Source of the DNA: Elainella saxicola E1
Lineage (GTDB): Bacteria; Cyanobacteriota; Cyanobacteriia; Elainellales; Elainellaceae
DNA length: 55,129 nucleotides
NCBI GenBank assembly: GCA_002796835.1
Contig: LUGL01000003.1
Span: 3,252 to 58,380 of the forward strand
Direction of reading: 5' to 3'
Shown here: positions 15,901 through 35,571 of the stretch, in pieces
How positions within the stretch are numbered: the first letter of the stretch is position 1
How the letters are laid out: every line of letters starts with the position of its first letter
Translations under genes and position numbers: made by a program
Notes under the pieces: model-generated
The model's input: only the letters and a program-made list of their open reading frames with translations
Told to the model about the DNA's origin: nothing
Database searches by the model: none

Positions 15901-18024
15901 ATGGCAATTATCACGGTTACATCTACCGCCGATAACGGTGCAGGATCCTTGAGAGCAGCCATTGCGTCTGCCCAAGCAGGGGACATTATTCAATTCAATG
16001 CTGGTCTTGCCAATAAAACGATTCAACTCACGAGCGGCCAGCTCGAAATTCAACCCGGTAAAAATATCACGATCGATGGAGCTAGCGCAGCCAATCTTAC
16101 CCTAAGTGGTAACAATGCCTCCCGCATTCTGCATGTCAATTCCAATCAAGATTTCCCTACGACTATCGCGATCAAAAATCTCATCTTTGCCAATGGTTCA
16201 ACTCGTGAACAGGGTGGCGCAATCTTAGGGGAGCACAAAGCGAATATCACGGTTGAAAACGTTAAATTCCGCAATAATGTCGCCGATAAAGGGGGCGGCG
16301 CAATTTTTAGCAATTGGGAAAACAATCTGACCGTCAATAACAGCCAGTTTGACAGTAATGTTGCGACTCAAGGCAATGATGAACGAGGAGCAGGAGCAAT
16401 CGCCTTTGTCAGTGCCGGTAACTTTATTGTCCGCAACAGCACCTTCAATAACAACCAGGGAATCAACGGCGGTGCGATCAACAGCTTGAATGGCAAGTTG
16501 ACAATCGAAAACTCCAAGTTCACCAACAACAGCACAACCGCAGCGAGACTGGATACTGGCAAACCAAATCCCACGTTACGCGGCTATGGCGGGGCTTTAT
16601 ATACCGATCGGGCCAGTGCTTCCAATGAAGCCTCCGGCAGTATTCGCATCGTCAACACCACCTTTGAAGGGAATCAGGGTTTAGCCGAAGGCGGAGGCGC
16701 TTACCTCTACACCGGCAACCAGGATAATGTGGTCATCGAAGGCACCAGCTTTAAAAACAATCAGGTCAATGCGCTGGCAGGTGGCAGTGGTGGCAATGGC
16801 GGCGGTTTAGTGGTGCTGAGCAATGGTCTCAATCGAGGACTAACGCTAAACCGGACTTCATTTACAAACAATAGTGCGACCAGTCAAGGGGGCGGTTTAT
16901 GGATGATGGGTGCACCATCCACAATCACCAACAGCACTTTTTCGGGGAATAAAGCCCTGAAAAGCGAAGTCCCTTCAGAAAACGATGCCAGCCATAATGG
17001 TGGCGCAATGGCGCTATATGATGCACCGACAACCATTGTTAACAGCACGATCGCCAATAACAAGGCTGGCTGGGTTGGTGGAGGCATCGCAGCCAGCAAT
17101 GCGGCAACCGTACAGCTGAAAAACACCATCTTTGCCAAAAATACGGCCTTGAATGGTGGCAATCCCTGGAATATTCAATATAACGTTAACCGTCAGTTTG
17201 ATGATGGTGGCGGCAACATTCAGGACCAGGCGATCAATGGCGATAAGGTTACCGCAGGCGCACAGGTGATCGATCCGAAACTGGGACTTCTGCAAGACAA
17301 TGGTGGTGGATTACTCACTCATGCACTGTTGTCCGGTAGTCCGGCCATCAACACAGGCGTTAGCTCAGGCGCACCAGCGGTCGATGAACGGGGCTTTGCG
17401 CGAGATGGTCAACCTGACGTTGGCGCTTTCGAATTTGGGGCCTCCGGTGGTACAGGCAGTTCCACCATTCAAGGCACCGATGGTAACGATACATTGACAG
17501 GTACCGCTGGCAAAGACACCATTCTGGCGGGTGCAGGCAACGATGTGCTGATTGGTGGCTTAGAGGCAGACCGGCTCACCACAGGCACTGGAGCCGATCG
17601 CGTTGTCTATGCAGGCAGCAGTATCACCAATGCCTTTGCAAATTCACGGTTGGCTTCGCGCGATCGCATCACCGATTTCAATGTGGGGCAGGGCGATCGG
17701 ATTCAGCTCGATTTCGATAATAATCTGGCGACCTCTCAGCGTCCGGTGGGCTTGTTTAATGCAGGAACAGTAAGTGGCGGCACAATGTCCGCTGCCGTGA
17801 AAGCAGCCTACAGCGACAAAAACCAAACGCTTGCCAATGCTCAAGGGCTTAACGTTAACGAAGCAGTGCTGTTTCAATGGCAACAGGGTACCTATCTATC
17901 GGTAAATGATGGCGTCAAGGCATTTGATGCAACCCGTGATTTAGTGGTGAACATGACGGGTATCAATATGCCTGCGGCCCACAAAACTGCGGGTGGGTTA
18001 CCGATCGCCAGTTATTTTGTATAG
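15901..18024 (+). CDS. Large RTX/beta-helix surface protein, probably type I secreted
   Basis: The 707-residue protein has no N-terminal signal. Residues about 1-520 form a right-handed parallel beta-helix: repeated units such as GGGAIFSN, GGAIN, GGALYT and NSTFSGN recur every 20-30 residues, as in polymorphic outer-membrane-like repeats, starting with ITVTSTADNGAGSLRAAI. Around residues 524-575 are RTX-type calcium-binding nonapeptides (GTDGNDTLTGTAGKDTI, GAGNDVLIGG). The C-terminal part (DRITDFNVGQGDRIQLDFDN... then an AAVKAAYSDKN stretch and VLFQWQQGTYLSVNDG) resembles a cyanobacterial C-terminal domain that I recall under the name bluetail. These features fit a type I secreted surface protein; no secretion genes are nearby. 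Confidence 0.88.
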   Translation: MAIITVTSTADNGAGSLRAAIASAQAGDIIQFNAGLANKTIQLTSGQLEIQPGKNITIDGASAANLTLSGNNASRILHVNSNQDFPTTIAIKNLIFANGSTREQGGAILGEHKANITVENVKFRNNVADKGGGAIFSNWENNLTVNNSQFDSNVATQGNDERGAGAIAFVSAGNFIVRNSTFNNNQGINGGAINSLNGKLTIENSKFTNNSTTAARLDTGKPNPTLRGYGGALYTDRASASNEASGSIRIVNTTFEGNQGLAEGGGAYLYTGNQDNVVIEGTSFKNNQVNALAGGSGGNGGGLVVLSNGLNRGLTLNRTSFTNNSATSQGGGLWMMGAPSTITNSTFSGNKALKSEVPSENDASHNGGAMALYDAPTTIVNSTIANNKAGWVGGGIAASNAATVQLKNTIFAKNTALNGGNPWNIQYNVNRQFDDGGGNIQDQAINGDKVTAGAQVIDPKLGLLQDNGGGLLTHALLSGSPAINTGVSSGAPAVDERGFARDGQPDVGAFEFGASGGTGSSTIQGTDGNDTLTGTAGKDTILAGAGNDVLIGGLEADRLTTGTGADRVVYAGSSITNAFANSRLASRDRITDFNVGQGDRIQLDFDNNLATSQRPVGLFNAGTVSGGTMSAAVKAAYSDKNQTLANAQGLNVNEAVLFQWQQGTYLSVNDGVKAFDATRDLVVNMTGINMPAAHKTAGGLPIASYFV

Positions 18025-23244: not shown

Positions 23245-26200
23245 TTGAAGCGCAATTCTTTCCTCGTTGCTCTGTTGATTGTTGCTGTCACTTCCCTAAA
23301 AGCTGAGGCACAGATCAACCCTGATCATACACTTGGCCCAGATCGTTCACGTCTCACACCTGCATCCGATCGAACCGTAATTGAAGGAGGGGCGAGGCGA
23401 GGTCGCAATTTATTTCACAGTTTTCGAGAATTTAATGTTGAGACAGGGCGATCGGTTTATTTCGCCAATCCGGATGGTGTGCAGCGCATTTTTGGTCGCG
23501 TCACAGGCTCGAATCGTTCCAACATTCTGGGTACCCTGGGCGTTCTAGGCAATGCCGATCTGTTTTTGATCAATCCCAATGGCATTTTGTTTGGGCCGAA
23601 TGCTCGCTTGGATGTGCGGGGTTCGTTTCTGGCCACCACCGCCGATCGGGTTTTGTTTCACAACTACAGCTTTAACGCCAGCAATCCCACTCCACCGCCG
23701 CTACTGACAATCCATAGGCCGATCGGGCTGCAAATGGGGGCAACGCCTGGAGCCATTCGGATGGAAGGCAATGCGACAACCAAAACCCAATTTTCTGTAC
23801 CTAATAGCGAAACCTTTGGCCTCTTGGGCGGCAACGTGACCCTAACCAATGCTGAGATCACAGCTCCATCGGGACGGATTAATCTCGGCAGTCTGCGATC
23901 GGGAACGGTCAAGCTAACTGAAACAGGGACTGGCTTTCGCTTGGAATCTCCGGTTCTGCCGATCGATCCAACGTTTGAGGGCGACAATGTTTTGCTGGAC
24001 AATGCCCGACTGTTTATTGCTGAACAGGGTGATGTGGTGGGGAGTGCGTCCGATCGTGGCATCTATTTTTTGGGGAACAACATTCAGCTCCACAATCAGT
24101 CTGATGTGGAAATCAACAACAACAGCAGCAGTCATGGTGGTCCGATTCGGGTTGATGCAAACCGGTTGCGCCTCAGCCTGGGGGGAAAACTGGAAACAAC
24201 AAGTTCACTACAGGGAATTGGTGGCGAAATTATTATCAATGCTGCTGATCAAGTGACTCTGATTGGGAATAACCCGGTAGACCCTCTTCGTATCAGCAAT
24301 ATTCTCACTGCATCGGATACGGTGGGACGGGGTGGAGATATTCGGATTCAGACTGGCCGACTACAGCTTCGTCAAGGGGCAGAAATCATCAGTTTCGGCA
24401 ATCGTGCAGGCCGAGGTGGAGATGTAACCATACGAGCCTCTGAATCTATTACTGCAACTGGAATTCCGACGACTCGACCCCAGGGCGGCAGTAATATCGG
24501 GGCGGTAGTTTGGGGAAGTGGCCGTGGCGGCAATATTCACATCGTGACTCCCCGCTTAGTTTTGCGAGATGGTAACCGCGTTCAGGCCGTCTCAAATAGT
24601 AGTGGGCACGGGGGCAATATTACGATCGAGGCAAATACGATCATTGCCGAAGGATTTAATCCTAAACTGCCTTTTTTTCCATCTGGGATTGTGGCGCTTC
24701 CCTTAAATAGCGGTGACGGAGGTGACATTCGCGTCATAACTCAGAATCTCGACCTATCTAGAGGCGCAAATCTCAGTACTGCTTTGGCCAGCAACTATGA
24801 GGTTTTGACCTTACTGACGGGCGGAGAGTTTGATGCGGTGAATGCAGGTACAGGCAATGCCGGGAATCTCCGAGTTCAAGCGAACCGCATCCTGATTCGG
24901 GGGGGCAATCCTCGACTTCCCGATAATCCAACCCAGCTCAGCAGTGTTACCTTTGGCCAGGGTGATGCTGGAGATGTCGATGTCTCAACCCGCGAATTAA
25001 CCATCCTGGATGGAGGCGCATTACTCTCTGCTTCGCTGCTTTCCCTGTCTGTGCTTGGTACTCCGCTACCCACTTCTGGGCGTGGCAATGGTGGCAACTT
25101 GACGGTGAATGCAGAAAACATTCTTTTGGATGGGCTCAACCGTCAATTAGGGCTGAGCAGTTTGCTAGGAACTCTGGCAGGTGGATTTGGCCAAGGCGGC
25201 AATACACAAATTCGCACAGGAAATCTAACGGTTAGGAATGGTGGCACGGTTAATTCAGGTACCTATGCCGTTGGTAATGCCGGACGTTTAGCGATCGAAG
25301 CTGATTCAATTCAGGTAGAAGGGGTGCATGCTAGTGGTCAACGATCGGCCATTGGTACCTTTGCCGATCGACCCGATCCCACCCTGAGAGAAGCCTTTGT
25401 GTTGCCTGCCCGACCCACCGGAGATACGGGAGAACTGACGATTCAGAGTGATTACCTCAATGTTGAGGATGGCGGACTAATTAGCGTTCGGCATCAAGGC
25501 AGTGGCAATGCAGGACGCATGCGATTGCGCGTTAATCAGCTTCAGCTGAATGGAGGAGAGCTGTCAGCCGAAACGGCTTTAGGGCAGGGGGGGAATATTA
25601 CCGTTCAGTCTGATACCTTGTTGCTGCGCCAGAATAGCCAAATCACGGCAACCGCATTGGGTGGAACCGGGAACGGCGGCAACTTAACGCTGAACTCTGA
25701 ATTGATTGGCACTTTGCCCAATGAAAATAATGACCTGATCGCCAATTCAGTCGGCGGCAACGGCGGAGAGATTAATCTCACTACACCCCTTTTGGCTGGA
25801 TTTGAACCGCGCGATCGCCTCACGTCTGAAAGCGACATCACGGCCAGCTCTGAGTTGGGCATTGATGGCACGATTCGGATTCTCTCGCCCAACATTGATA
25901 CCAACCAATTGACAACTGAACTGCCTGAAGCACCTTTGGATAGCAGCGATCAAATCACCACAGGCTGTCCTGCCGATCAAGAAGCCTCTTTTGTGGTCTC
26001 AGGCCGAGGTGGGCTTCCAGCAACCCCATCTGACATCCTCAATCGCACAGTTTGGCAAGATGATCGCGTAGACTCAACTCCCCCAGAATCTTACTCCTCT
26101 CTTTCTAACCGAAGCGATGCTGCTGCCAATTCTGGTGGCCCGATCGTTGAGGCGCAAACTTGGGTTTTGAACGATCGCGGACAAGTAGAACTCAGGCCAA

Positions 26201-26271
26201 CGCTATCTGCAATGAGACCAAGCAACAGGAACTCTGCCCTGTGTTTCGCGAACCAAACTGGTATGCAGTAG
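23245..26271 (+). CDS. TPS-type filamentous hemagglutinin-like exoprotein, copy 1
   Basis: This 1008-residue secreted protein starts at a TTG that is conserved with its tandem paralogue; there is no suitable ATG. A signal peptide (MKRNSFLVALLIVAVTSLKA, cleavage near AEA) is followed by a TPS domain, with NADLFLINPNGILFGPNA and RLDVRGSFLATTADRV as key motifs. The long middle is a beta-helix of repeats containing GxGGxI and DGG. The C-terminus has GCP (C908), the motif FVVSGRGGLPATP, VWQDDR and a final Cys at C1000, nine residues from the end; these are the only cysteines. The TPS domain should be recognised by an outer-membrane TpsB pore, which is not in the window. A role as a surface adhesin is likely. 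Confidence 0.9.
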   Translation: MKRNSFLVALLIVAVTSLKAEAQINPDHTLGPDRSRLTPASDRTVIEGGARRGRNLFHSFREFNVETGRSVYFANPDGVQRIFGRVTGSNRSNILGTLGVLGNADLFLINPNGILFGPNARLDVRGSFLATTADRVLFHNYSFNASNPTPPPLLTIHRPIGLQMGATPGAIRMEGNATTKTQFSVPNSETFGLLGGNVTLTNAEITAPSGRINLGSLRSGTVKLTETGTGFRLESPVLPIDPTFEGDNVLLDNARLFIAEQGDVVGSASDRGIYFLGNNIQLHNQSDVEINNNSSSHGGPIRVDANRLRLSLGGKLETTSSLQGIGGEIIINAADQVTLIGNNPVDPLRISNILTASDTVGRGGDIRIQTGRLQLRQGAEIISFGNRAGRGGDVTIRASESITATGIPTTRPQGGSNIGAVVWGSGRGGNIHIVTPRLVLRDGNRVQAVSNSSGHGGNITIEANTIIAEGFNPKLPFFPSGIVALPLNSGDGGDIRVITQNLDLSRGANLSTALASNYEVLTLLTGGEFDAVNAGTGNAGNLRVQANRILIRGGNPRLPDNPTQLSSVTFGQGDAGDVDVSTRELTILDGGALLSASLLSLSVLGTPLPTSGRGNGGNLTVNAENILLDGLNRQLGLSSLLGTLAGGFGQGGNTQIRTGNLTVRNGGTVNSGTYAVGNAGRLAIEADSIQVEGVHASGQRSAIGTFADRPDPTLREAFVLPARPTGDTGELTIQSDYLNVEDGGLISVRHQGSGNAGRMRLRVNQLQLNGGELSAETALGQGGNITVQSDTLLLRQNSQITATALGGTGNGGNLTLNSELIGTLPNENNDLIANSVGGNGGEINLTTPLLAGFEPRDRLTSESDITASSELGIDGTIRILSPNIDTNQLTTELPEAPLDSSDQITTGCPADQEASFVVSGRGGLPATPSDILNRTVWQDDRVDSTPPESYSSLSNRSDAAANSGGPIVEAQTWVLNDRGQVELRPTLSAMRPSNRNSALCFANQTGMQ

Positions 26272-26301
26272 GACGACATGGGCATTCCATGGGCGATCGC
26301 G

Positions 26302-26307
26302 TATATT
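26302..26307 (+). promoter_or_regulatory. Candidate -10 element for the second TPS gene
   Basis: TATATT lies 59 bp before the TTG start at 26366, matching TATAGT in copy 1. The flanking sequence is also shared (CGATCG before it, TTGGAGTTTCTG and GTCCGGTATC after it), so the promoter region was copied with the gene. Confidence 0.35.
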
Positions 26308-26365
26308 TTGGTTTGGAGTTTCTGGGTGGGCATCCTCGCCTGCCTTATTCAAATCGTCCGGTATC

Positions 26366-29300
26366 TTGAAGCGCTATTCTTTCCTTGTTTCCCTATTGGT
26401 TGTGGCTGTTGCTTCCTTAAAAGCTGAAGCACAAATTAACCCAGATAATACGCTTGGACCAGACCAATCGCGTCCTATTGCTGAATCCGATCGCATGCTC
26501 ATTAAAGGGGGTGCCAGACGAGGTCACAATCTCTTCCACAGCTTTCGTGACTTTAATGTTGGAGAAGGCCAATCGGTTTATTTCAACAATCCCGATGGCG
26601 TGGAGCGCATCTTTAGCCGCGTCACAGGCAGGCAGCGATCGAACATTCTCGGCACGTTGGGGGTTCTGGGCAATGCCGATTTGTTTCTGGTTAATCCCAA
26701 CGGAATTCTGTTTGGCCCGAATGCTCGTTTAGATCTGCGGGGTTCGTTCCTAGCGACGACAGCCGATCGGATTTTATTTGACGACTATCGTTTTAGCGCC
26801 ACCAACCCCACTGCCCCACCCTTACTAACAGTGCATACGCCGATCGGACTGCAAATGGGGACGAGTCCTGGGACAATTCGAGTGGAAGGGAATGCCATCA
26901 ACAGAACCCCATTTTCTATTGCCAATGGAGAAACGTTTGGCCTCCTGGGTGGCAACCTTGTGCTAACAAATACTCAAATTAATGTGCCATCGGGACGGAT
27001 TGAGTTGGGCAGTCTGCGATCGGGCCAGGTGAACCTAGAGGAACCAGCAGTGGGATTTCGCTTGGGCTATCCGGTGCTGCCGATCGATTCGACGTTTGAG
27101 GGCGGCAATATTGAGATGAATAACGCCCGATTGTTTATTGCTGAGCAGCCAGATGCGGTGGGAAGTGCGTCCGATCGCGGCATTTATTTAGTGGGGAACC
27201 AGATTCAGCTGCACAACCAGACCGATGTGAGAATTCACAATACCAGTCGTGTGAACGGTGGCCCGATTCAGATTGACGCAACTTTGTTGCATCTTAGACG
27301 GGGCGCACGGATTGAAGCAATCAGCCAGACGCAGGGTTCTGGCGGCACCATAACTGTAAATGCTGCTGATCAAATTACTCTTCGTGGCACCAATCCCCTT
27401 GAACCTGAGCGCATGGGCGGTATTTTAACGGCATCTGAGCAGGTGGGCCGAGCTGGAGATATTCAGGTTCAAACTGCCCAGTTGCAGATTCGCCAGGGGG
27501 GAGAAATTGTCAGCCTTTCAGGGGCGACAGGCCGAGGGGGAGATGTGACGGTGCAGGCTTCTGAGTCCATCACTGCCACGGGTATTGCGACAATGCGGCC
27601 TACTGTTGGGAGCCAGATTGGTGCGTTTTCTCTGGGAAGTGGCAGGGGTGGCAATATTCATGTGATTACCCCACGTTTAGTTTTACGCGATGGCAACCGG
27701 GTTCAGACGGCCTCAAGTGGAAGTGGGCAGGGGGGGAATATTACGATTGAAGCAGACACCATCATTGCTGAAGGGTTTAATCCTAAACTGCTGATTTTAC
27801 CCTCTGGGATTGTTGCAATTCCCTGGAATAGCGGAGATGGTGGCAACGTTCGGGTTACAGCCCAAACCATTGAACTTTCTGGAGGCGCGAGTCTCAGCAC
27901 GGCTTTAGCCAGCAATTATGAGGTTTTCGTCTTCCTCACGGGTGGAGAATTCGATCCAAATACTGCTGGGACAGGCAATGCAGGCAGTGTGAATGTAAAA
28001 GCGGACAGTATTTTGATTCAGGGCGGTAATTCTCGTGGGCCGGATAATCCCAGCCAACTCAGCAGTGTCACCTTTGGTCAAGGCGATGCCGGAGATGTGA
28101 ATGTTTCGACCCGGCAGTTGACCATTCGAGATGGAGGTGCGCTCACCTCTTCTTCGTTTCTTTCTCTCTCTGTTTTAGCCCAGCCTCTGCCGACCTCTGG
28201 GCGCGGTGATGCCGGAGATTTAAGCGTGAATGCTGACAACATTCTTTTAGAGGGATTCAATACCCAATTGGGGCTAGGCAGTTTCCTCGGCACCCTTTCG
28301 GGTGGATTTGGTCAGGGTGGCAACGCCAGAATTCGCGCTGGCAATCTGACTGTGAGGAATGGTGGCACTGTCAATTCGGGGACGTTCGCGATCGGTAATG
28401 CAGGTCGTCTAGATATTCAGGCCGATTCAATTCAGGTGGAAGGCGTCCATTCTAGCGGCCAACGATCGGTCATTGGAACCTTTGCCGATCGGCCTGATCC
28501 GGCTCTGCGAGAAGTGTTTGTTCTGCCTCCTCGTCCAACGGGAGATACGGGAGAACTGACGATTCAGAGCGATCGCCTCAATGTCCAGGATGGAGGACTG
28601 GTCAGCGTGCGGCATCAAGGCAGCGGCAATGCTGGACGAATGCGGCTGCAAGTCAATCAGCTTCAGCTCGATCGCGGCACATTATCAGCAGAAACCGCTT
28701 TGGGGCAGGGTGGCAATATTACCGTTCAGTCTGATACTTTGCTGCTGCGCCATCAGAGCCAAATCACAGCAACGGCTTTAGGCGGCAACGGCGATGGCGG
28801 TAACTTAACGTTGAACGCTAGCATTATCGGGGCCTTGCAAACTGAAAATAGTGACCTGATTGCCAATTCGGTACGGGGCAGCGGCGGACAAATTAACCTG
28901 ACTACCCCGACTTTAGTGGGACTGGAACCGCACGATCGCCTCACGCCTCAAAGTGATATTACCGCTAGCTCTGAGTTGGGCATTGATGGCACCATCCGCA
29001 TTGTTTCTCCAAACATCAACACTAGCCACCTGATGACTCAACTGCCAGAGACTCCCCTGGAGAGGAGCGATCAGATTGTAGCGGGCTGTCCTTCTACAGG
29101 AGGTTCTACCTTTGTGGTCACCGGCAGAGGTGGATTACCCGCAACACCGGCAGAAGTGATGAACCGGGCTTTCGTTTGGCAAGATGAACGGCAACTGGTG
29201 AGTGATCCTTCTGCCCCAACAACATCGCCTGCCGCAATGGCTGATCGATCGATCGTCGAGGCTCAAGGATGGCGGCTCAATCTTCAAGGCCAAGTGGAAT

Positions 29301-29377
29301 TGATGGCCACTTCACCTCAGGCTGATCCCATCAATCCGGCAACGAGATGTGTCGTGAACGCCCGCTCTAAATCGTAA
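26366..29377 (+). CDS. TPS-type filamentous hemagglutinin-like exoprotein, copy 2
   Basis: A tandem paralogue of the gene at 23245, 1003 residues, with the same order: signal peptide (MKRYSFLVSLLVVAVASLKA), TPS domain (NADLFLVNPNGILFGPNARL), long beta-helix, and C-terminus with C908 in AGCPSTG, FVVTGRGGLPATP, VWQDER and C995. Most of the length aligns without gaps, but substitutions are spread throughout, including many silent ones, so the duplication is not recent. The TTG start and upstream 60 bp are shared with copy 1. The 94-bp gap between copies carries the copied promoter. It is followed by the CHAT gene on the same strand. The two could form a mixed fibre or be alternative adhesins. 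Confidence 0.9.
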   Translation: MKRYSFLVSLLVVAVASLKAEAQINPDNTLGPDQSRPIAESDRMLIKGGARRGHNLFHSFRDFNVGEGQSVYFNNPDGVERIFSRVTGRQRSNILGTLGVLGNADLFLVNPNGILFGPNARLDLRGSFLATTADRILFDDYRFSATNPTAPPLLTVHTPIGLQMGTSPGTIRVEGNAINRTPFSIANGETFGLLGGNLVLTNTQINVPSGRIELGSLRSGQVNLEEPAVGFRLGYPVLPIDSTFEGGNIEMNNARLFIAEQPDAVGSASDRGIYLVGNQIQLHNQTDVRIHNTSRVNGGPIQIDATLLHLRRGARIEAISQTQGSGGTITVNAADQITLRGTNPLEPERMGGILTASEQVGRAGDIQVQTAQLQIRQGGEIVSLSGATGRGGDVTVQASESITATGIATMRPTVGSQIGAFSLGSGRGGNIHVITPRLVLRDGNRVQTASSGSGQGGNITIEADTIIAEGFNPKLLILPSGIVAIPWNSGDGGNVRVTAQTIELSGGASLSTALASNYEVFVFLTGGEFDPNTAGTGNAGSVNVKADSILIQGGNSRGPDNPSQLSSVTFGQGDAGDVNVSTRQLTIRDGGALTSSSFLSLSVLAQPLPTSGRGDAGDLSVNADNILLEGFNTQLGLGSFLGTLSGGFGQGGNARIRAGNLTVRNGGTVNSGTFAIGNAGRLDIQADSIQVEGVHSSGQRSVIGTFADRPDPALREVFVLPPRPTGDTGELTIQSDRLNVQDGGLVSVRHQGSGNAGRMRLQVNQLQLDRGTLSAETALGQGGNITVQSDTLLLRHQSQITATALGGNGDGGNLTLNASIIGALQTENSDLIANSVRGSGGQINLTTPTLVGLEPHDRLTPQSDITASSELGIDGTIRIVSPNINTSHLMTQLPETPLERSDQIVAGCPSTGGSTFVVTGRGGLPATPAEVMNRAFVWQDERQLVSDPSAPTTSPAAMADRSIVEAQGWRLNLQGQVELMATSPQADPINPATRCVVNARSKS

Positions 29378-29673: not shown

Positions 29674-29700
29674 GGATGTCTTGTGGCTAGAATCGGCAAA

Positions 29701-32052
29701 ATGCGGCAACTGAAGCAAAAGCGATCGTCAAAGAAGGGGAAACAGCTTCACTCTTTATATGCTGTTCCAAAATCATTCAAACTCTGGTTAGTTGGAGGTT
29801 TCGCTTGCCTATTGGCGATCGCGCTCCATTTATGCATGATTCCTCCTCTTTATGCTGTATCGCCAGATGCTTTTTCGGTGTCTCTCTCGACAGCCCGATC
29901 GCTCAATCTCCAGGGGAATGAACAGCTCGAACGCGGCAATCCTCAGGCAGCGCTTGGGCTTTGGCAGCAAGCCGAGCAACAGTACCGCCATGCAGGCGAT
30001 GATCTGGGCGTATGGGGTAGTCAGGTCAATCAAGCAAAAGCCTTGCAAGCTCTGGGCTTTTATCGTCGAGCACAGTCTTTGCTGGAACCTGTCGTGCAGC
30101 AACTTGAGGCCCAGCCTGATTCGGCGCTGAAGTTAACAACGTTATTAAGCCTGGGGGATGTTCTGCGGTTACTTGGTAATTTAGCCGACGCCCAGGGAAT
30201 GTTGCAAACCAGCCTGGAGATGGCACAACGCTTACAATTGCCTGCTTACATTCAGGCGGCTCATCTCTATTTAGGCAACACGTTAGTAGCGCAGCAAAAT
30301 CCAGCCGCGATCAATCATTACCATCAAGCTGCTGCGATCGAGGGTCCACTACAAATCACTGCCCAATTGCGAGAGCTAGCGCTTCTGCCTGCATCAGATT
30401 CATCTAGCCAAAGTGTTCAGCTTGCAGCCCAAATTGCAACTCAGTTGAGTTCACTCCCTGCTAGCGCGGTCAGCATTTATGGTCGGATTGAATTGGCAAA
30501 ATGGCTGATCCAGTTCCCGGGAACTACCCCACTCTCTATTGCCGATCTGTTGACAACCGCCACTCAACAAGCGCAGGTTTTAGGCGATCGACGGGCTGAA
30601 TCCTATGCAATCGGCTATTTGGGCCACTGGTATGAACAGCAGCAACAGTGGGATACTGCACAACAATCCACCCAAACGGCATTAGCAATTGCTAATGAAA
30701 TGGATGCACCCGATGTTGCCTATCAGTGGCAGTGGCAGTTGGGGCGCATTTTCATTGCGCAAAATCAGCAGGCTGAAGCGGTGACAGCCTATGCGATGGC
30801 GGTTGATTCGCTGCAATCGATTCGGCAAGATCTGGTTGCCGTTGCTCAAGATGTCCAGTTCTCTTTTCGATCGCAAGTGGAGCCTGTTTATCGGGAATTG
30901 GTTGATTTATTGTTGTCTCCTCATAGTCCCGCACCGAGATCGAGCGCTCAACTAGCGCAGGCCCGTCAGACGATCGAAGCCCTCCAGCTGGCAGAGATCA
31001 ATAACTTCTTTCGAGAAGCTTGTCTGGAAACAGAACTGGCTGCCATTGACACGCTCGATCCGACAGCGGCGATCCTCTATCCGATCATTCTGCCGGACTG
31101 TCTGGAAGTGATTCTGGCTCTGCCGGGACAGCCGTTACGCCACTACACAACCCTGTTACCCCAAACCGAAATTGAAGCGGGAATTCAACGCATGCTGCAA
31201 TCTATGCGATCGACCTCGTTTGCAGCAGAGCGGTTGCCCGTCGCCCAAGAACTATATCAATGGCTCGTTCAGCCTGCTGCCGCTGAGTTAGAGCAAGCGG
31301 GGATTCAAACCCTGGTATTTGTGCTGGATGGCTCACTACGGAACCTGCCGATGGCCGCATTGCATGATGGCACTCAGTATCTGATCGAACAATATCGGGT
31401 TGCGGTTGCTCCCAGTTCTCAACTGGTCCGGGCAGTCGCTAAACCGCAGAAGCAGAAGGTGTTAGTCGGTGGCTTAAGTGAAGCAGTAGAAAATTTGGTT
31501 CCCCTGCCGGGAGTCATGCAGGAAATTTTGCAAATCCAGCAGGAGATGCCAACAGAAGTACTGTTGAATCAGCAATTTACGCCAACCGCTCTCAAAACGA
31601 AGGCAAAGCATCGACCTTTCACAATTTTGCATCTCGCCACCCACGGTCAGTTTGGTTCCACAGCTGAAGAGACGTTTGTTCAAACTTGGGATGGACGACT
31701 CACAGTAAAAGATCTACAAACGTTGCTGAAACAACAAGAAGATCTGCAAGGAATGCCGATCGACCTGCTCGTCTTAAGCGCTTGCCAAACGGCTCAAGGA
31801 GATAACCAAGCGGCTTTAGGCATGGCGGGTGTGGCCCTGCGATCGGGTGCAGCCAGTACCCTCGCAACCCTCTGGACCGTGAACGATCAATCCACTGCCG
31901 ATTTTATGACCCTGTTCTATGCCACGCTCAATCAACCGGGCATGACCAAAGCGGAGGCGGTGCGGCAGGCGCAACTTCATCTGATTCACCAAACCCGCTA
32001 CCAGCATCCCTTTTACTGGGCTCCTTTCATCCTGGTTGGAGATTGGTTATGA
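29701..32052 (+). CDS. Exported TPR-CHAT caspase-like protein
   Basis: The ATG at 29701 is chosen; a GTG at 29683 would add six residues. A basic start and hydrophobic stretch (LWLVGGFACLLAIALHLCM) indicate a signal peptide or anchor, with possible cleavage after LYA, so the protein acts outside the cytoplasm. Residues about 45-370 are tetratricopeptide-like helices (LNLQGNEQLERGNPQAALGLWQ, ALQALGFYRRAQSLLEPVV). The C-terminal CHAT domain has the catalytic pair H648 (ILHLATHGQFG) and C695 (LVLSACQTAQG), and ends in GVALRSGAASTLATLW. CHAT is a relative of caspases and gingipains. Its position after two TPS genes suggests those as substrates, which is inference. Confidence 0.93.
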   Translation: MRQLKQKRSSKKGKQLHSLYAVPKSFKLWLVGGFACLLAIALHLCMIPPLYAVSPDAFSVSLSTARSLNLQGNEQLERGNPQAALGLWQQAEQQYRHAGDDLGVWGSQVNQAKALQALGFYRRAQSLLEPVVQQLEAQPDSALKLTTLLSLGDVLRLLGNLADAQGMLQTSLEMAQRLQLPAYIQAAHLYLGNTLVAQQNPAAINHYHQAAAIEGPLQITAQLRELALLPASDSSSQSVQLAAQIATQLSSLPASAVSIYGRIELAKWLIQFPGTTPLSIADLLTTATQQAQVLGDRRAESYAIGYLGHWYEQQQQWDTAQQSTQTALAIANEMDAPDVAYQWQWQLGRIFIAQNQQAEAVTAYAMAVDSLQSIRQDLVAVAQDVQFSFRSQVEPVYRELVDLLLSPHSPAPRSSAQLAQARQTIEALQLAEINNFFREACLETELAAIDTLDPTAAILYPIILPDCLEVILALPGQPLRHYTTLLPQTEIEAGIQRMLQSMRSTSFAAERLPVAQELYQWLVQPAAAELEQAGIQTLVFVLDGSLRNLPMAALHDGTQYLIEQYRVAVAPSSQLVRAVAKPQKQKVLVGGLSEAVENLVPLPGVMQEILQIQQEMPTEVLLNQQFTPTALKTKAKHRPFTILHLATHGQFGSTAEETFVQTWDGRLTVKDLQTLLKQQEDLQGMPIDLLVLSACQTAQGDNQAALGMAGVALRSGAASTLATLWTVNDQSTADFMTLFYATLNQPGMTKAEAVRQAQLHLIHQTRYQHPFYWAPFILVGDWL

Positions 32053-32114: not shown

Positions 32115-32837
32115 ATGCCAATGATCCCCTTTACGCATGTTGAAGCGAAACCTAGTCTGATTTTGCCGATCGTCCTGGCAGCCAGTGTTTTCTCGATTCC
32201 CTCCCCAGCGACAGCCGCGTTTGATCCACCGCCTGATCGAGGGGCTCCTGCCGGAACGGCGGGCGGAGGTTCGCGTTCGGTTGGGCAAAATTGTCTGCAA
32301 GATCCGCAAAGTTTGGAATCGTTTATTGCCCTTTCTCCCCAAAATTTTGTTGGCTTAACGGCAAGTGAACAACCTGAACTCTGGGTGTATGTGCCGCCCA
32401 CTGTAGCTAAAACGCTGGAATTTAGCCTATTTGACGATCAGCAAAACGGCGTTTATCAAGCCAATATTGCAGTCCCCCATGCCGGATTAGTCAAATTGCC
32501 GCTCCCGGAAACCGTCAAACTAGAACCCCAGAAGTTCTATTACTGGACTGCAGCCCTAGCTTGCGACACAACGCATCGCACTGATGATTGGGTGGTGGGA
32601 AGCTGGGTGAAATATCAGCCGATCGATCCATCCTTGCAGCAAGCACTGGCCCGGTCTAATCCACTGCAAAAGGTCGATCTCTATATCCAAGCAGGATTTT
32701 GGTATGAAGCACTGCACCAACTGACGGAACTTCAGAAAGTCCAGCCCAGCAGTCCTGACTTAGAAGCGCAGTGGGTGATTTTAATGCAGTCTGCCGGACT
32801 CAGTTTGGACCCGACGCACCTTTCAGCCCTACCTTAA
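32115..32837 (+). CDS. DUF928 family secreted protein
   Basis: The 240-residue protein has a signal peptide (hydrophobic PSLILPIVLAASVFSIP, cleavage after PATAA) followed by a Gly/Pro-rich linker with RGAPAGTAGGGSR, a hallmark of DUF928. The mature part is mostly beta (ELWVYVPPTVAKTLEFSLFDDQ, FYYWTAALACD) and ends with a short helical region. It holds two cysteines, which may form a disulfide. Function is unknown; the family is largely cyanobacterial and often found next to CHAT and CHASE2 genes, which is my recollection. It starts 62 bp after the CHAT gene and is probably in the same transcript. Confidence 0.9.
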   Translation: MPMIPFTHVEAKPSLILPIVLAASVFSIPSPATAAFDPPPDRGAPAGTAGGGSRSVGQNCLQDPQSLESFIALSPQNFVGLTASEQPELWVYVPPTVAKTLEFSLFDDQQNGVYQANIAVPHAGLVKLPLPETVKLEPQKFYYWTAALACDTTHRTDDWVVGSWVKYQPIDPSLQQALARSNPLQKVDLYIQAGFWYEALHQLTELQKVQPSSPDLEAQWVILMQSAGLSLDPTHLSALP

Positions 32838-32991: not shown

Positions 32992-33081
32992 AGGGTGAAG
33001 GAGCTTAGGTTGAAGCAACTCAGGTTTAAGGAACTCAGCTTGAAGCAGTTGGGATTAAAGCAAGCCAGACCGAAGAAACTC
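32992..33081 (+). repeat. Six 15-bp repeats at the start of the kinase gene
   Basis: Units such as AGGTTGAAGCAACTC and AGGTTTAAGGAACTC run head to tail, the last two more diverged. They are in frame and encode imperfect five-residue repeats (LKQLR, FKELS, LKQLG). The region spans the proposed start, which makes the exact start uncertain. Confidence 0.75.
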
Positions 33082-35571
33082 AAACAGCCGTGGCAATTAG
33101 CAGCGATCGCCCTGGGTGTAACAGCTGCCACGATCGGCCTGCAATGGACAGGCACTTTCCAACTGCTGGAATGGGTGATTTTAGATGGCTGGTTTCGGTT
33201 GCGTCCTCCAGAAGCTCGACAAACTCCCGTTGTGTTGGTGTTAATCGATGAGACCGATATGGCGCAACTGGGCCGCTGGCCAATCTCAGATGGTCAATTA
33301 GCTCAGTTGATCGTCAAGCTTCAACAGCATCATCCAACCCTGATTGGACTCGATCTCTATCGTGATTTGCCCATTGAACCAGGCACTGCTGACCTGCATC
33401 AGGTTTTTCGAACCTCTCCTAACCTGATTGGCATTCAAAAAGCGATCGGAAATTCCGCAGGTTTTGCCGTTCAACCTCCTCCAATTCTGCGAGATCGGAA
33501 CCAGGTCGCCATCAATGATCTGATCCTGGATGTGGATGGGAAGCTGCGCCGCAATCTCTTCTCCATTCGGCAGCAAGATAAAACCAATTTGTCTTTGGGA
33601 GCGATGCTAGCGCTCACCTATTTGCAAAAGCAACAGATCCTGCCGCAAACCCAACCAGATGGCACAATCCAGCTCGGCAAAGCACATTTCCGTCCCTTAA
33701 CTGCAAATGTCGGCGGCTATGTCAGGGCAGATGTCGGCGGATACCAGACCCTAGCGAATTATTTGCGCCTCAAAGATGGCATGCCGACGCTGTTCTACCG
33801 AGATGTCATGGCCGATCGCGTGTCTTCAGACCTGCTGCGCGACAAGATTGTGTTGATTGGCATCAAAGCAGAGAGTGTTTGGGGCGATCGCTTCTATACT
33901 CCTTACACGACTCAAAGCACTGAAACCTGGGCAGGGGTAGAAATCCATGCCAACTTAGCGGCTCAAATCATTAGCAGTGCCCTGGAAGGCCGATCGCAAC
34001 TGCAAGGATTGCCAGAGCTGCTGGAATGGAGCTGGATTCTGCTCTGGGCCAGTTTGGGAACCGCCTATGGCTGGACTTTTCGATCGCTTAAGGGCGGAGG
34101 ACTGCGGTTGTTGCTGGCGATCGCGATCTTAACTAGCGCCACCTATGGATTATTTCTGCTCAATTGGTGGACTGTGCTGGTTAGCCCCTGCGTGGCTTTT
34201 ATTGCAGGTGGATTGTCGAGCAGAGGCTATTGGATTTGGCGGACTTTGAAGCAAGCCAATCAGACCCTGGAAGCAACCGTAGCAGCCCGCACGCAAGAAC
34301 TTCGAGAGAAAAATTCGGCATTAGAGGCAGCCCGCATCCAAGCTGAAGCCGCAAACCAGGCTAAAAGCATGTTTCTGGCTAGCATGAGTCATGAGTTGCG
34401 CACCCCTCTGACCGCAATTTTGGGATTCAGCGATCTGCTTAGTCACTCTGCCACCCTGGCACTAGATGAACAAGAATATCTCGCTATCATCAACCGTAGT
34501 GGGGAACACCTCTTAGGTTTAATCAACGATGTCCTGGAATTGGCCAAGCTTGAGGCCGGTTCCACAAAGCTGCAACTCGTTGCGGTAGAGCTGCCTACAT
34601 TACTAACGAATCTGGAACGGATGTTTTCTCTAAAGGCAGCCGCTAAAGAGTTGATCCTTCAGTCCGACTATTCGAATGACTTGCCTATCTGGATCCAAAC
34701 CGATGAGGGCAAACTGCGCCAAATCTTGATCAACTTGCTGGGGAACGCCATCAAATTCACGCAGGCAGGCAGTGTCACCTTACGGGTGAAGCCGATCCAA
34801 TCCGGCTCTGACGATCGGTCCAACAGTCACTGCACTGGGGAAAGATCTGCTTTAGGGGTATGCCAGACGCTGCAATTTGAAGTTGAGGATACGGGGATTG
34901 GCATTTCTGCAGCAGACTGCAAACAGTTGTTTCAACCCTTTTTTCAGGCAGCCGCAGGTATTGAGTCGGGCATTGGCACCGGGCTGGGGCTGTCTATCAG
35001 TCGTCAATTCGTTGAATTGCTGGGTGGAAGGATCGGAGTAAATAGCATCCTCGGACAAGGCAGTACTTTTCATTTTGAGATTCCGGTTCAGGTTTTGCCA
35101 AATCCGGCTGCTTCTAACAATCCGGCTAAACCGAAAGTCTGGAAATTAACACCCCAGTCCCCTTGCTATCGCGTCCTCGTGGTCGATGATCAGTCAGATT
35201 GCTGCCTGCTGCTGACCCAGTGGCTAACCAATGCTGGGTTCGAGGTCAGTATGGCGATTAATGGAAAGGAGGCGATCGGCCAATGGCAAGTCTGGCAACC
35301 CCATCTCGTCTTGTTAGATATTCATCTTCCCGATCTGGATGGTTATCAAGTCGCGCACTACATTCGCACTAATCGGACCAGTCCCCAGGATGATTCCGCC
35401 GCTTCTTTGCTCCAGGCTGAACCAGCCATTATTGCCTTAACAGCAGGCGGCGTTAAAGAGAACCGTAGCGACATCTTGGCCGCAGGTTGTAATGATGTGA
35501 TCTGGAAGCCGATCAAAGATGATGAGGTCTTCACGAAGATTGCCGAGCATTTAGCGGTGACCTATATTTAG
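32995..35571 (+). CDS. CHASE2 hybrid sensor histidine kinase
   Basis: The protein has 858 residues if it starts at the GTG at 32995. A basic tandem-repeat N-terminus (residues 1-30) leads to a membrane helix near residues 33-50. A CHASE2 extracytoplasmic sensor follows to about residue 330 (VVLVLIDETDMAQLGRWP at its start, DKIVLIGIKAESVWGDRFYTP near its end), then about three membrane helices, the H-box with H466 (MSHELRTPL), HATPase boxes (NLLGNAIKF, DTGIG, GTGLGL), and an intact receiver with D775 (LVLLDIHLPDLDG) and a conserved Lys (WKPI). CHASE2 senses an unknown signal outside the membrane. It is last in the TPS-CHAT-DUF928 block and could report on the surface module; no separate regulator is adjacent. 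Confidence 0.93.
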   Translation: MKELRLKQLRFKELSLKQLGLKQARPKKLKQPWQLAAIALGVTAATIGLQWTGTFQLLEWVILDGWFRLRPPEARQTPVVLVLIDETDMAQLGRWPISDGQLAQLIVKLQQHHPTLIGLDLYRDLPIEPGTADLHQVFRTSPNLIGIQKAIGNSAGFAVQPPPILRDRNQVAINDLILDVDGKLRRNLFSIRQQDKTNLSLGAMLALTYLQKQQILPQTQPDGTIQLGKAHFRPLTANVGGYVRADVGGYQTLANYLRLKDGMPTLFYRDVMADRVSSDLLRDKIVLIGIKAESVWGDRFYTPYTTQSTETWAGVEIHANLAAQIISSALEGRSQLQGLPELLEWSWILLWASLGTAYGWTFRSLKGGGLRLLLAIAILTSATYGLFLLNWWTVLVSPCVAFIAGGLSSRGYWIWRTLKQANQTLEATVAARTQELREKNSALEAARIQAEAANQAKSMFLASMSHELRTPLTAILGFSDLLSHSATLALDEQEYLAIINRSGEHLLGLINDVLELAKLEAGSTKLQLVAVELPTLLTNLERMFSLKAAAKELILQSDYSNDLPIWIQTDEGKLRQILINLLGNAIKFTQAGSVTLRVKPIQSGSDDRSNSHCTGERSALGVCQTLQFEVEDTGIGISAADCKQLFQPFFQAAAGIESGIGTGLGLSISRQFVELLGGRIGVNSILGQGSTFHFEIPVQVLPNPAASNNPAKPKVWKLTPQSPCYRVLVVDDQSDCCLLLTQWLTNAGFEVSMAINGKEAIGQWQVWQPHLVLLDIHLPDLDGYQVAHYIRTNRTSPQDDSAASLLQAEPAIIALTAGGVKENRSDILAAGCNDVIWKPIKDDEVFTKIAEHLAVTYI

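What the first reader, a model, noticed from the sequence alone, without database searches (positions are those of the whole stretch)
25950..29377. Exactly two cysteines in each ~1000-residue TPS exoprotein, both at the extreme C-terminus
Reading the two proteins, each has only two Cys. From the TTG start, the first is at residue 908 in both copies, and the last is nine residues from the end in both (C1000 and C995). Such exclusivity in a diverged pair implies selection. In Haemophilus HMW1, a C-terminal cysteine pair forms a disulfide loop that holds the exoprotein in its TpsB pore; here the loop would be much larger, 86-91 residues. A tether or a redox latch is a sensible hypothesis.
Basis: partly seen in the sequence, partly recalled or inferred. 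Interest (0 to 1): 0.7.

Follow-up and report, generated by a model that had tools for sequence, protein, structure and literature searches.

The report
Giant C-terminal cysteine hook on exoproteins
Two very large cyanobacterial surface proteins carry just two cysteines, at their extreme tail; the same pair caps most related cyanobacterial proteins examined, so it is probably a disulfide-closed hook that keeps the protein plugged into its export pore.

Summary
Each TpsA-type protein has exactly two Cys (C908/C1000 and C908/C995), loops of 91 and 86 residues, with 8 residues after the last Cys. It is not peculiar to this pair. Among 100 cyanobacterial TPS proteins picked by their N-terminal domain only, 96 could be read to a stop and 78 end in the same pair (loop 65-156, median 93); 71 of the 78 have no other Cys after the TPS onset. 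On a tree of the N-terminal domain, one lineage of 89 rows (window pair included) has the pair in 84; the sister CHAT-ended lineage of 9 rows lacks it. A second sample found by a GRGGL peptide has the pair in 77 of 78 loci. The Cys bracket a conserved ~120-residue module that Pfam and NCBIfam do not cover, at a fixed distance from the beta-helix end, where HMW1, HxuA and CdrA carry a disulfide anchor. The TPS domain is also of the HMW1/HxuA type. Best reading: a giant HMW-type cysteine hook. The disulfide and the tethering are inferred. A gene for an exported TPR-CHAT caspase-like protein often follows directly (31 of 73 loci).

The parts
23245..26271 (+). TpsA-type exoprotein 1 (TTG start 23245; alternative TTG 23233), signal peptide, TPS domain, beta-helix body, Cys-hook module
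   Evidence: signal peptide read by eye
26366..29377 (+). TpsA-type exoprotein 2, 72% identical to copy 1
23308..24027 (+). TPS secretion domain (PF05860) of copy 1
   Evidence: E 1.5e-55
26429..27148 (+). TPS secretion domain (PF05860) of copy 2; PDB relatives are EtpA, HMW1-PP, HxuA
25888..26271 (+). C-terminal Cys-hook module of copy 1 (linker, C1, GRGGLP, W/EAQ hairpin, C2, stop)
   Evidence: no Pfam or NCBIfam model
29009..29377 (+). C-terminal Cys-hook module of copy 2
25966..25968 (+). C1 of copy 1
26242..26244 (+). C2 of copy 1
29087..29089 (+). C1 of copy 2
29348..29350 (+). C2 of copy 2
26002..26019 (+). GRGGLP motif inside the loop, copy 1
   Evidence: sequence; position
29123..29140 (+). 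GRGGLP motif inside the loop, copy 2 (G-R-G-G-L in 67 of 67 rows of A6)
29683..32052 (+). TPR-CHAT protein with an N-terminal hydrophobic signal or membrane segment; follows directly; probable functional partner
   Evidence: neighbour pattern
32115..32837 (+). DUF928 protein with a signal-peptide-like N-terminus
32995..35571 (+). CHASE2 hybrid histidine kinase; kept near module loci in 20 of 78

Best explanation
The two cysteines close a C-terminal module of about 120 residues that acts as a hook. The chain is exported N-terminus first through an unlinked TpsB pore, and its beta-helix folds outside. About 27 residues after the last beta-helix strand would thread the pore. The tail, cross-linked C1-C2 in the periplasm (the genome has a VKOR-type oxidase), forms a ring of ~65-156 residues that cannot pass, so the exoprotein stays on the cell surface. 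This works like the C-terminal disulfide anchor of HMW1, HxuA and CdrA, with a ring about ten times larger and a conserved sequence of its own. Shown here: the pair, its conservation and near-exclusivity, the fixed C1 spacing, the HMW/HxuA-type TPS domain, and fusions that put the pair directly before POTRA. Inferred: the disulfide, its periplasmic location, and the tether.
For: 78 of 96 N-terminus-picked TPS proteins end in the pair, 71 of the 78 without any other Cys from the TPS onset. Of the other seven, six have four Cys and one has three, so the count is even in 77 of 78. A TPS-domain tree puts the pair in 84 of 89 rows of one lineage and 0 of 9 of its CHAT-ended sister (window pair included, 82 of 87 without it). 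77 of 78 loci found by the GRGGL peptide have both Cys in frame. C1 sits 15 residues after a conserved Leu (range 15-16, sd 0.34) while the C1-C2 distance varies (84-113). The last predicted beta-helix strand ends 27 residues before C1, comparable with the ~30-residue pore segment proposed before HxuA Cys855 (PMC4873976). TPS domain matches EtpA, HMW1-PP and HxuA and no FHA-type structure. Four natural TpsA-TpsB fusions keep the pair just before the TpsB part, C2 lying 18-24 residues before POTRA_2 in the three where it is detected. VKOR homologue in the genome.
Against: No experiment shows the disulfide or the location. In fused proteins, already covalently tethered, the pair is kept, so tethering cannot be its only role, or those fusions are young. 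The 18-24 residues between C2 and POTRA could also span a pore, leaving the module outside. The genome has 15 TPS proteins but 6 POTRA_2 hits, none of them on the window's contig, which is awkward if each hook blocks one pore.
Confidence: 0.68

Rival explanations
1. The disulfide only stabilises a small C-terminal domain that passes to the outside with the rest, capping the beta-helix or binding a surface ligand; it is not an anchor.
For: Conserved hairpin and GRGGLP motif suggest a folded domain with a job of its own; the pair is kept in TpsA-TpsB fusions that need no anchor.
Against: A preformed ring of about 93 residues should stall in a TpsB pore; C2 sits at the very end (median 4.5 residues remain), where a hook is wanted; the HMW-type TPS domain goes with C-terminal anchoring in the studied members HMW1 and HxuA.
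Confidence: 0.17
2. The module is an FhaB-like prodomain: it holds the protein in the periplasm during export and is later cut off.
For: It is a separate conserved unit after the beta-helix; a signal-bearing CHAT (caspase-like) gene often follows (31 of 73 loci; 30 of 31 with a hydrophobic N-terminus and 28 of 31 with an H..TH / SxC dyad).
Against: No cleavage site or processing is known. The loop Arg of GRGG is not universal in the survey, so one fixed Arg site is unlikely. This reading adds to the hook rather than replacing it.
Confidence: 0.08
3. Redox latch: the pair switches between thiol and disulfide and so controls release under changing light or oxygen.
For: A cyanobacterial periplasm could see redox swings (general knowledge); only the pair itself supports it.
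Against: Nothing tested bears on switching; the pair is near-universal in one lineage of 89 TPS rows whatever the neighbours.
Confidence: 0.05
4. Coincidence in a Cys-poor protein class.
For: 0.18 Cys per 1000 residues upstream of the pair.
Against: 84 of 89 rows of one lineage and 77 of 78 loci of a second sample keep both at the same places.
Confidence: 0.01

Closest known systems
HMW subfamily of TpsA proteins: HMW1 (Cys1518/Cys1528) and HxuA (Cys855/Cys861) of Haemophilus influenzae
   Same: TPS domain of the second (HMW/HxuA/EtpA) type; beta-helix; a Cys pair at the extreme C-terminus; HxuA is described with two Cys near its C-terminus (PMC4873976 passage); a stretch of about 30 residues between beta-helix and first Cys.
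   Different: Ring of 65-156 residues instead of 9 and 5; a conserved ~120-residue module; no TpsB gene in the window and a TpsB hit in only 5 of 78 module loci; CHAT, DUF928 and CHASE2 genes as neighbours instead.
CdrA/CdrB with periplasmic protease LapG, Pseudomonas aeruginosa (cysteine hook)
   Same: A C-terminal Cys pair is thought to hold the TpsA in its pore (PMC11898600 and PMC7616799 passages); a protease gene may belong to the system.
   Different: No LapG-family peptidase in this genome (PF06035, 0 matches); the neighbouring candidate is a TPR-CHAT protein.
Type Vd / fused two-partner secretion (PlpD; Tery_3487 of Trichodesmium)
   Same: TpsA-TpsB fusions with beta-helical passengers exist (PMC3297439 section 8); L104, L106, L115 and L084 are such fusions.
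   Different: The window proteins are free-standing TpsA proteins.
FHA (FhaB/FhaC) subfamily
   Same: TPS domain and beta-helix.
   Different: No FHA-subfamily structure among the PDB matches of the TPS domain.

Membership tests
TpsA exoproteins (PF05860) | N-terminal TPS domain with NPNG motif after a signal peptide | tested here: met
HMW subfamily of TpsA | TPS domain of the HMW/HxuA type | tested here: met
   EtpA, HMW1-PP, HxuA matched at E down to 1.7e-15; no FHA-type chain listed
HMW subfamily of TpsA | Cysteine pair at the C-terminus | tested here: met
HMW subfamily of TpsA | The pair forms a disulfide (stated definition of the subfamily, PMC4873976 passage) | not testable with these tools
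   needs non-reducing mass spectrometry; even Cys number in 77 of 78 pair-ended proteins is only suggestive
HMW subfamily of TpsA | C-terminus held in the TpsB pore or periplasm | not testable with these tools
   fusions with POTRA after C2 fit but do not decide
HMW subfamily of TpsA | Short ring: the two Cys a few residues apart (usual in HMW1 and HxuA, not a stated requirement) | tested here: not met
   65-156 residues between the Cys in 78 proteins
HMW subfamily of TpsA | Cognate TpsB gene next to the TpsA gene (usual, not required) | tested here: not met
   no POTRA_2 hit on the window's contig; TpsB-like gene in 5 of 78 module loci
CdrA-LapG system | LapG-type periplasmic protease (PF06035) | tested here: not met
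   0 matches in the own genome; control genome Caulobacter rings
FHA subfamily of TpsA | TPS domain of the FHA/HpmA type | tested here: not met
   no FHA- or HpmA-type chain among 10 PDB matches at E up to 10

The most novel reading that the evidence does not exclude
Cyanobacteria use a large, so far unmodelled family of giant-ring cysteine hooks, and the ring is the docking or cutting site of an exported TPR-CHAT caspase-like protein encoded just downstream, with a CHASE2 kinase as sensor: a surface-to-periplasm retention and release system that does for these adhesins what LapG does for CdrA, built from unrelated parts. CHAT-ended TPS proteins that lack the pair would be the same device with the CHAT domain itself as the plug.
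Probability: 0.2. Interest if true: 0.82.

Novelty: new variant of a known kind. Interest (0 to 1): 0.6.

Why it matters
A review of type V secretion says that passenger cysteines are few and only a few residues apart, so that only small loops form (PMC8151025 passage). Here a ring of 65-156 residues is the norm: the module is found in 85 of 386 genomes of the phylum sample and 56 of 143 genera, often in many copies per genome, and no Pfam or NCBIfam model matched it. If the hook holds, most of these large cyanobacterial proteins, recognised only by their N-terminal adhesin domain, are cell-anchored rather than released, and two point mutations per protein would test it. The repeated placing of a signal-bearing caspase-like gene just behind these genes gives the periplasmic side a candidate partner.

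Tried and rejected
Chance in a Cys-poor protein: rejected. Arg of GRGGLP as a universal cleavage site: rejected, since some pair-ended survey proteins have another residue or no such motif. Solved relatives of the module: none credible; A6 gave one chain at E 0.0086 (flagellar hook-associated protein 2), A4 one at E 1. Foldseek of the AlphaFold2 model: best E 5.5, nothing. PHROGs: one weak match, E 0.039. Of 100 survey stretches four were dropped because no stop lay inside them (L098, L131, L145, L153); L131 shows both Cys. Results against the pair among the 96: L072, L102 and L138 have no Cys at all (L138 lies among CHAT rows on the tree, all three look truncated), L093 has a shifted pair (50 and 4 from the end), L132 and L136 keep C1 but lose C2 where TPR-CHAT is fused on. 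A pattern search of mine was too narrow and its 'no motif' rows carry no weight.

Own genome: 15 PF05860 hits. 12 read to a natural stop with the pair, one CHAT fusion without it (L025), two broken by an N in the contig (L023, L026). The survey rows were my picks, 60 of the 150 listed and 40 of the 150 listed, one or two per genome; both lists hold only the best matches. The label 'pair-ended' on the tree was defined by the pair, the tree by the TPS domain alone. The search used a profile that contains the Cys columns; the samples (TPS domain; GRGGL peptide) did not.

Literature: ten searches; in those listings I saw no paper describing this module or a CHAT link, and most subscription papers are not held. 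Papers seen as passages: PMC5422565, PMC3297439 (plus section 8), PMC4873976, PMC3983070, PMC11898600, PMC7616799, PMC8151025. Cooley 2016 and Grass 2015 are not held; Buscher 2006 only as cited.
Full report
What is there. Two head-to-tail genes, 23245-26271 and 26366-29377, encode proteins of about 1000 residues with a signal-peptide-like start, a TPS secretion domain (PF05860, E 1.5e-55 and 1.8e-56) and a long Gly/Asn-rich body. Each has exactly two cysteines, both near the end: C908/C1000 and C908/C995 from the homologous TTG starts, with 91 and 86 residues between them and 8 after. The copies are 72% identical overall and 50% over the last ~120 residues.

Is it more than chance? For two proteins alone the argument is weak, because the class is Cys-poor. 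I therefore took relatives by criteria that ignore cysteines. First, 100 stretches from cyanobacterial genomes chosen by the N-terminal TPS domain only. 96 could be read to a stop. 78 of these end in a Cys pair (second Cys within 40 residues of the end, spacing 65-165), with a median of 93 residues between the Cys and a median of 4.5 residues after the second (70 of 78 within 10). 71 of the 78 have no other Cys from the TPS onset to the stop, six have four and one has three. Upstream of the pair the density is 0.18 Cys per 1000 residues. The other 18: 11 end in a CHAT domain (one, L084, with the pair inside and two, L132 and L136, with C1 only), 3 end in a TpsB barrel with the pair inside, 4 others (three without Cys, one with a shifted pair). 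Second, a scan of genome contigs with the peptide F[VT][IV]TGRGGL gave 78 loci. 77 of 78 have both Cys in the frame examined; the exception, L196, is a frame-shifted partial second copy of the module behind a copy that has both. In the 67-row alignment A6 every fragment has exactly two Cys.

Where the pair occurs. A maximum-likelihood tree of the TPS domains (98 rows including the window pair) splits with strong support into 9 rows (8 CHAT-ended plus L138) without the pair and 89 rows. By the Cys positions, 84 of those 89 have the pair (82 of 87 without the window). In the window's own genome 12 of 15 TPS proteins can be read to a stop as non-CHAT proteins and all 12 have the pair. The module profile hits 85 of 386 genomes sampled from the phylum and 56 of 143 genera.

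Anatomy. The module starts after the last beta-helix coil. From A6: a conserved Leu (usually Leu-Pro) lies 15 residues before C1 (15-16, sd 0.34); GRGGLP begins 12 after C1 at the median; a stretch of 38-69 residues of variable length follows; then a conserved A..W..G..L segment of fixed length (13, sd 0.12); then 13-24 residues to C2 and a median of 3 to the stop. Fixed spacing outside the ring and variable length inside it is what a hook behind a pore-spanning linker would show. AlphaFold2 predicts the beta-helix with confidence (pLDDT 81-94), its last strand ending 27 residues before C1, and leaves most of the module at low confidence except one hairpin. Pfam does not know the module nor does NCBIfam; PDB and Foldseek searches gave no credible relative.

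Fusions. L104, L106 and L115 are TpsA-TpsB fusions in one chain, with the Cys pair directly before the POTRA_2 domain (Cys 819/909, 800/892 and 1186/1260; POTRA_2 from 928, 916 and 1285). L084 is one 2290-residue chain of TPS, module with both Cys, ShlB barrel, TPR and CHAT. POTRA domains are periplasmic, so the module sits at the pore or on its periplasmic side, or else the 18-24 residues between C2 and POTRA thread the pore; the fusions do not decide between these. Fused type V proteins with beta-helical passengers were noted before (Tery_3487, PMC3297439 section 8).

Likely mechanism. HMW1 is held at the surface by a non-covalent interaction that needs its last 20 residues and a disulfide between Cys1518 and Cys1528 (PMC3983070 passage). 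HxuA has Cys855/Cys861, and its authors place about 30 residues before them in the HxuB barrel (PMC4873976 passages). CdrA is thought to use a cysteine hook (PMC11898600 and PMC7616799 passages). The window proteins have the HMW/HxuA/EtpA type of TPS domain, the Cys pair in the same place and a linker of similar length, and the genome has a VKOR homologue (328-residue frame). I conclude that the pair most likely forms a disulfide-closed hook that stops the last part of the chain in its TpsB pore. The ring is about ten times that of HMW1, which makes this a new variant rather than a plain member. The disulfide and the tether remain inference.

Neighbours. No POTRA_2 (TpsB) hit lies on the window's contig, and a TpsB-like gene is near only 5 of 78 module loci. 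Instead a CHAT gene starts within 700 nt downstream on the same strand in 31 of 73 loci, against 0 of 63 upstream. 30 of these 31 CHAT frames have a strongly hydrophobic N-terminal segment (0 of 31 in an internal control region) and 28 of 31 have an H..TH / SxC dyad pattern (reading this as the catalytic dyad is recalled knowledge). The window repeats the order TPS, TPS, CHAT, DUF928, CHASE2 kinase. No LapG-type peptidase is in the genome. This suggests, but does not show, that the exported CHAT protein acts on the periplasmic end of the hook.

Limits. Survey rows were picked by hand from the best-match lists (60 and 40 of 150 listed rows each). Relatedness inflates counts, which is why the lineage statement is given. 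The retained pair in already fused proteins argues that tethering may not be its only role.

Noticed in passing
L025:2913-7043 (own genome, C222); L140, L150-L152, L154-L157: A deep-branching lineage of TPS proteins ends in a CHAT domain instead of the Cys module; in six of these eight survey proteins the only Cys after the TPS onset lies in the CHAT region, 113-120 residues from the end (L151 and L152 have one more).
   Followed up: partly
L084:451-7320: One 2290-residue frame holding TPS domain, Cys module, ShlB barrel, TPR and CHAT domains.
   Followed up: partly
window 32115-32837: DUF928 protein with a signal-peptide-like start, sitting between the CHAT gene and the CHASE2 kinase gene.
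   Followed up: no
window 15901-18024: A second kind of surface protein: RTX calcium-binding repeats, choice-of-anchor Q and 'bluetail' domains.
   Followed up: no
L196:4509-8675: Tandem partial duplication of the Cys module, the second copy ending in a frame shift.
   Followed up: partly
L173 and L203: Contigs labelled Candidatus Gracilibacteria carry the TPS module plus a CHAT gene (L173 also CHASE2) typical of cyanobacteria; probably mis-binned.
   Followed up: no
L077, L086, L091, L107, L129, L144: Pair-ended proteins with four Cys have the extra two only 3-8 positions apart, as expected of a second small disulfide.
   Followed up: no
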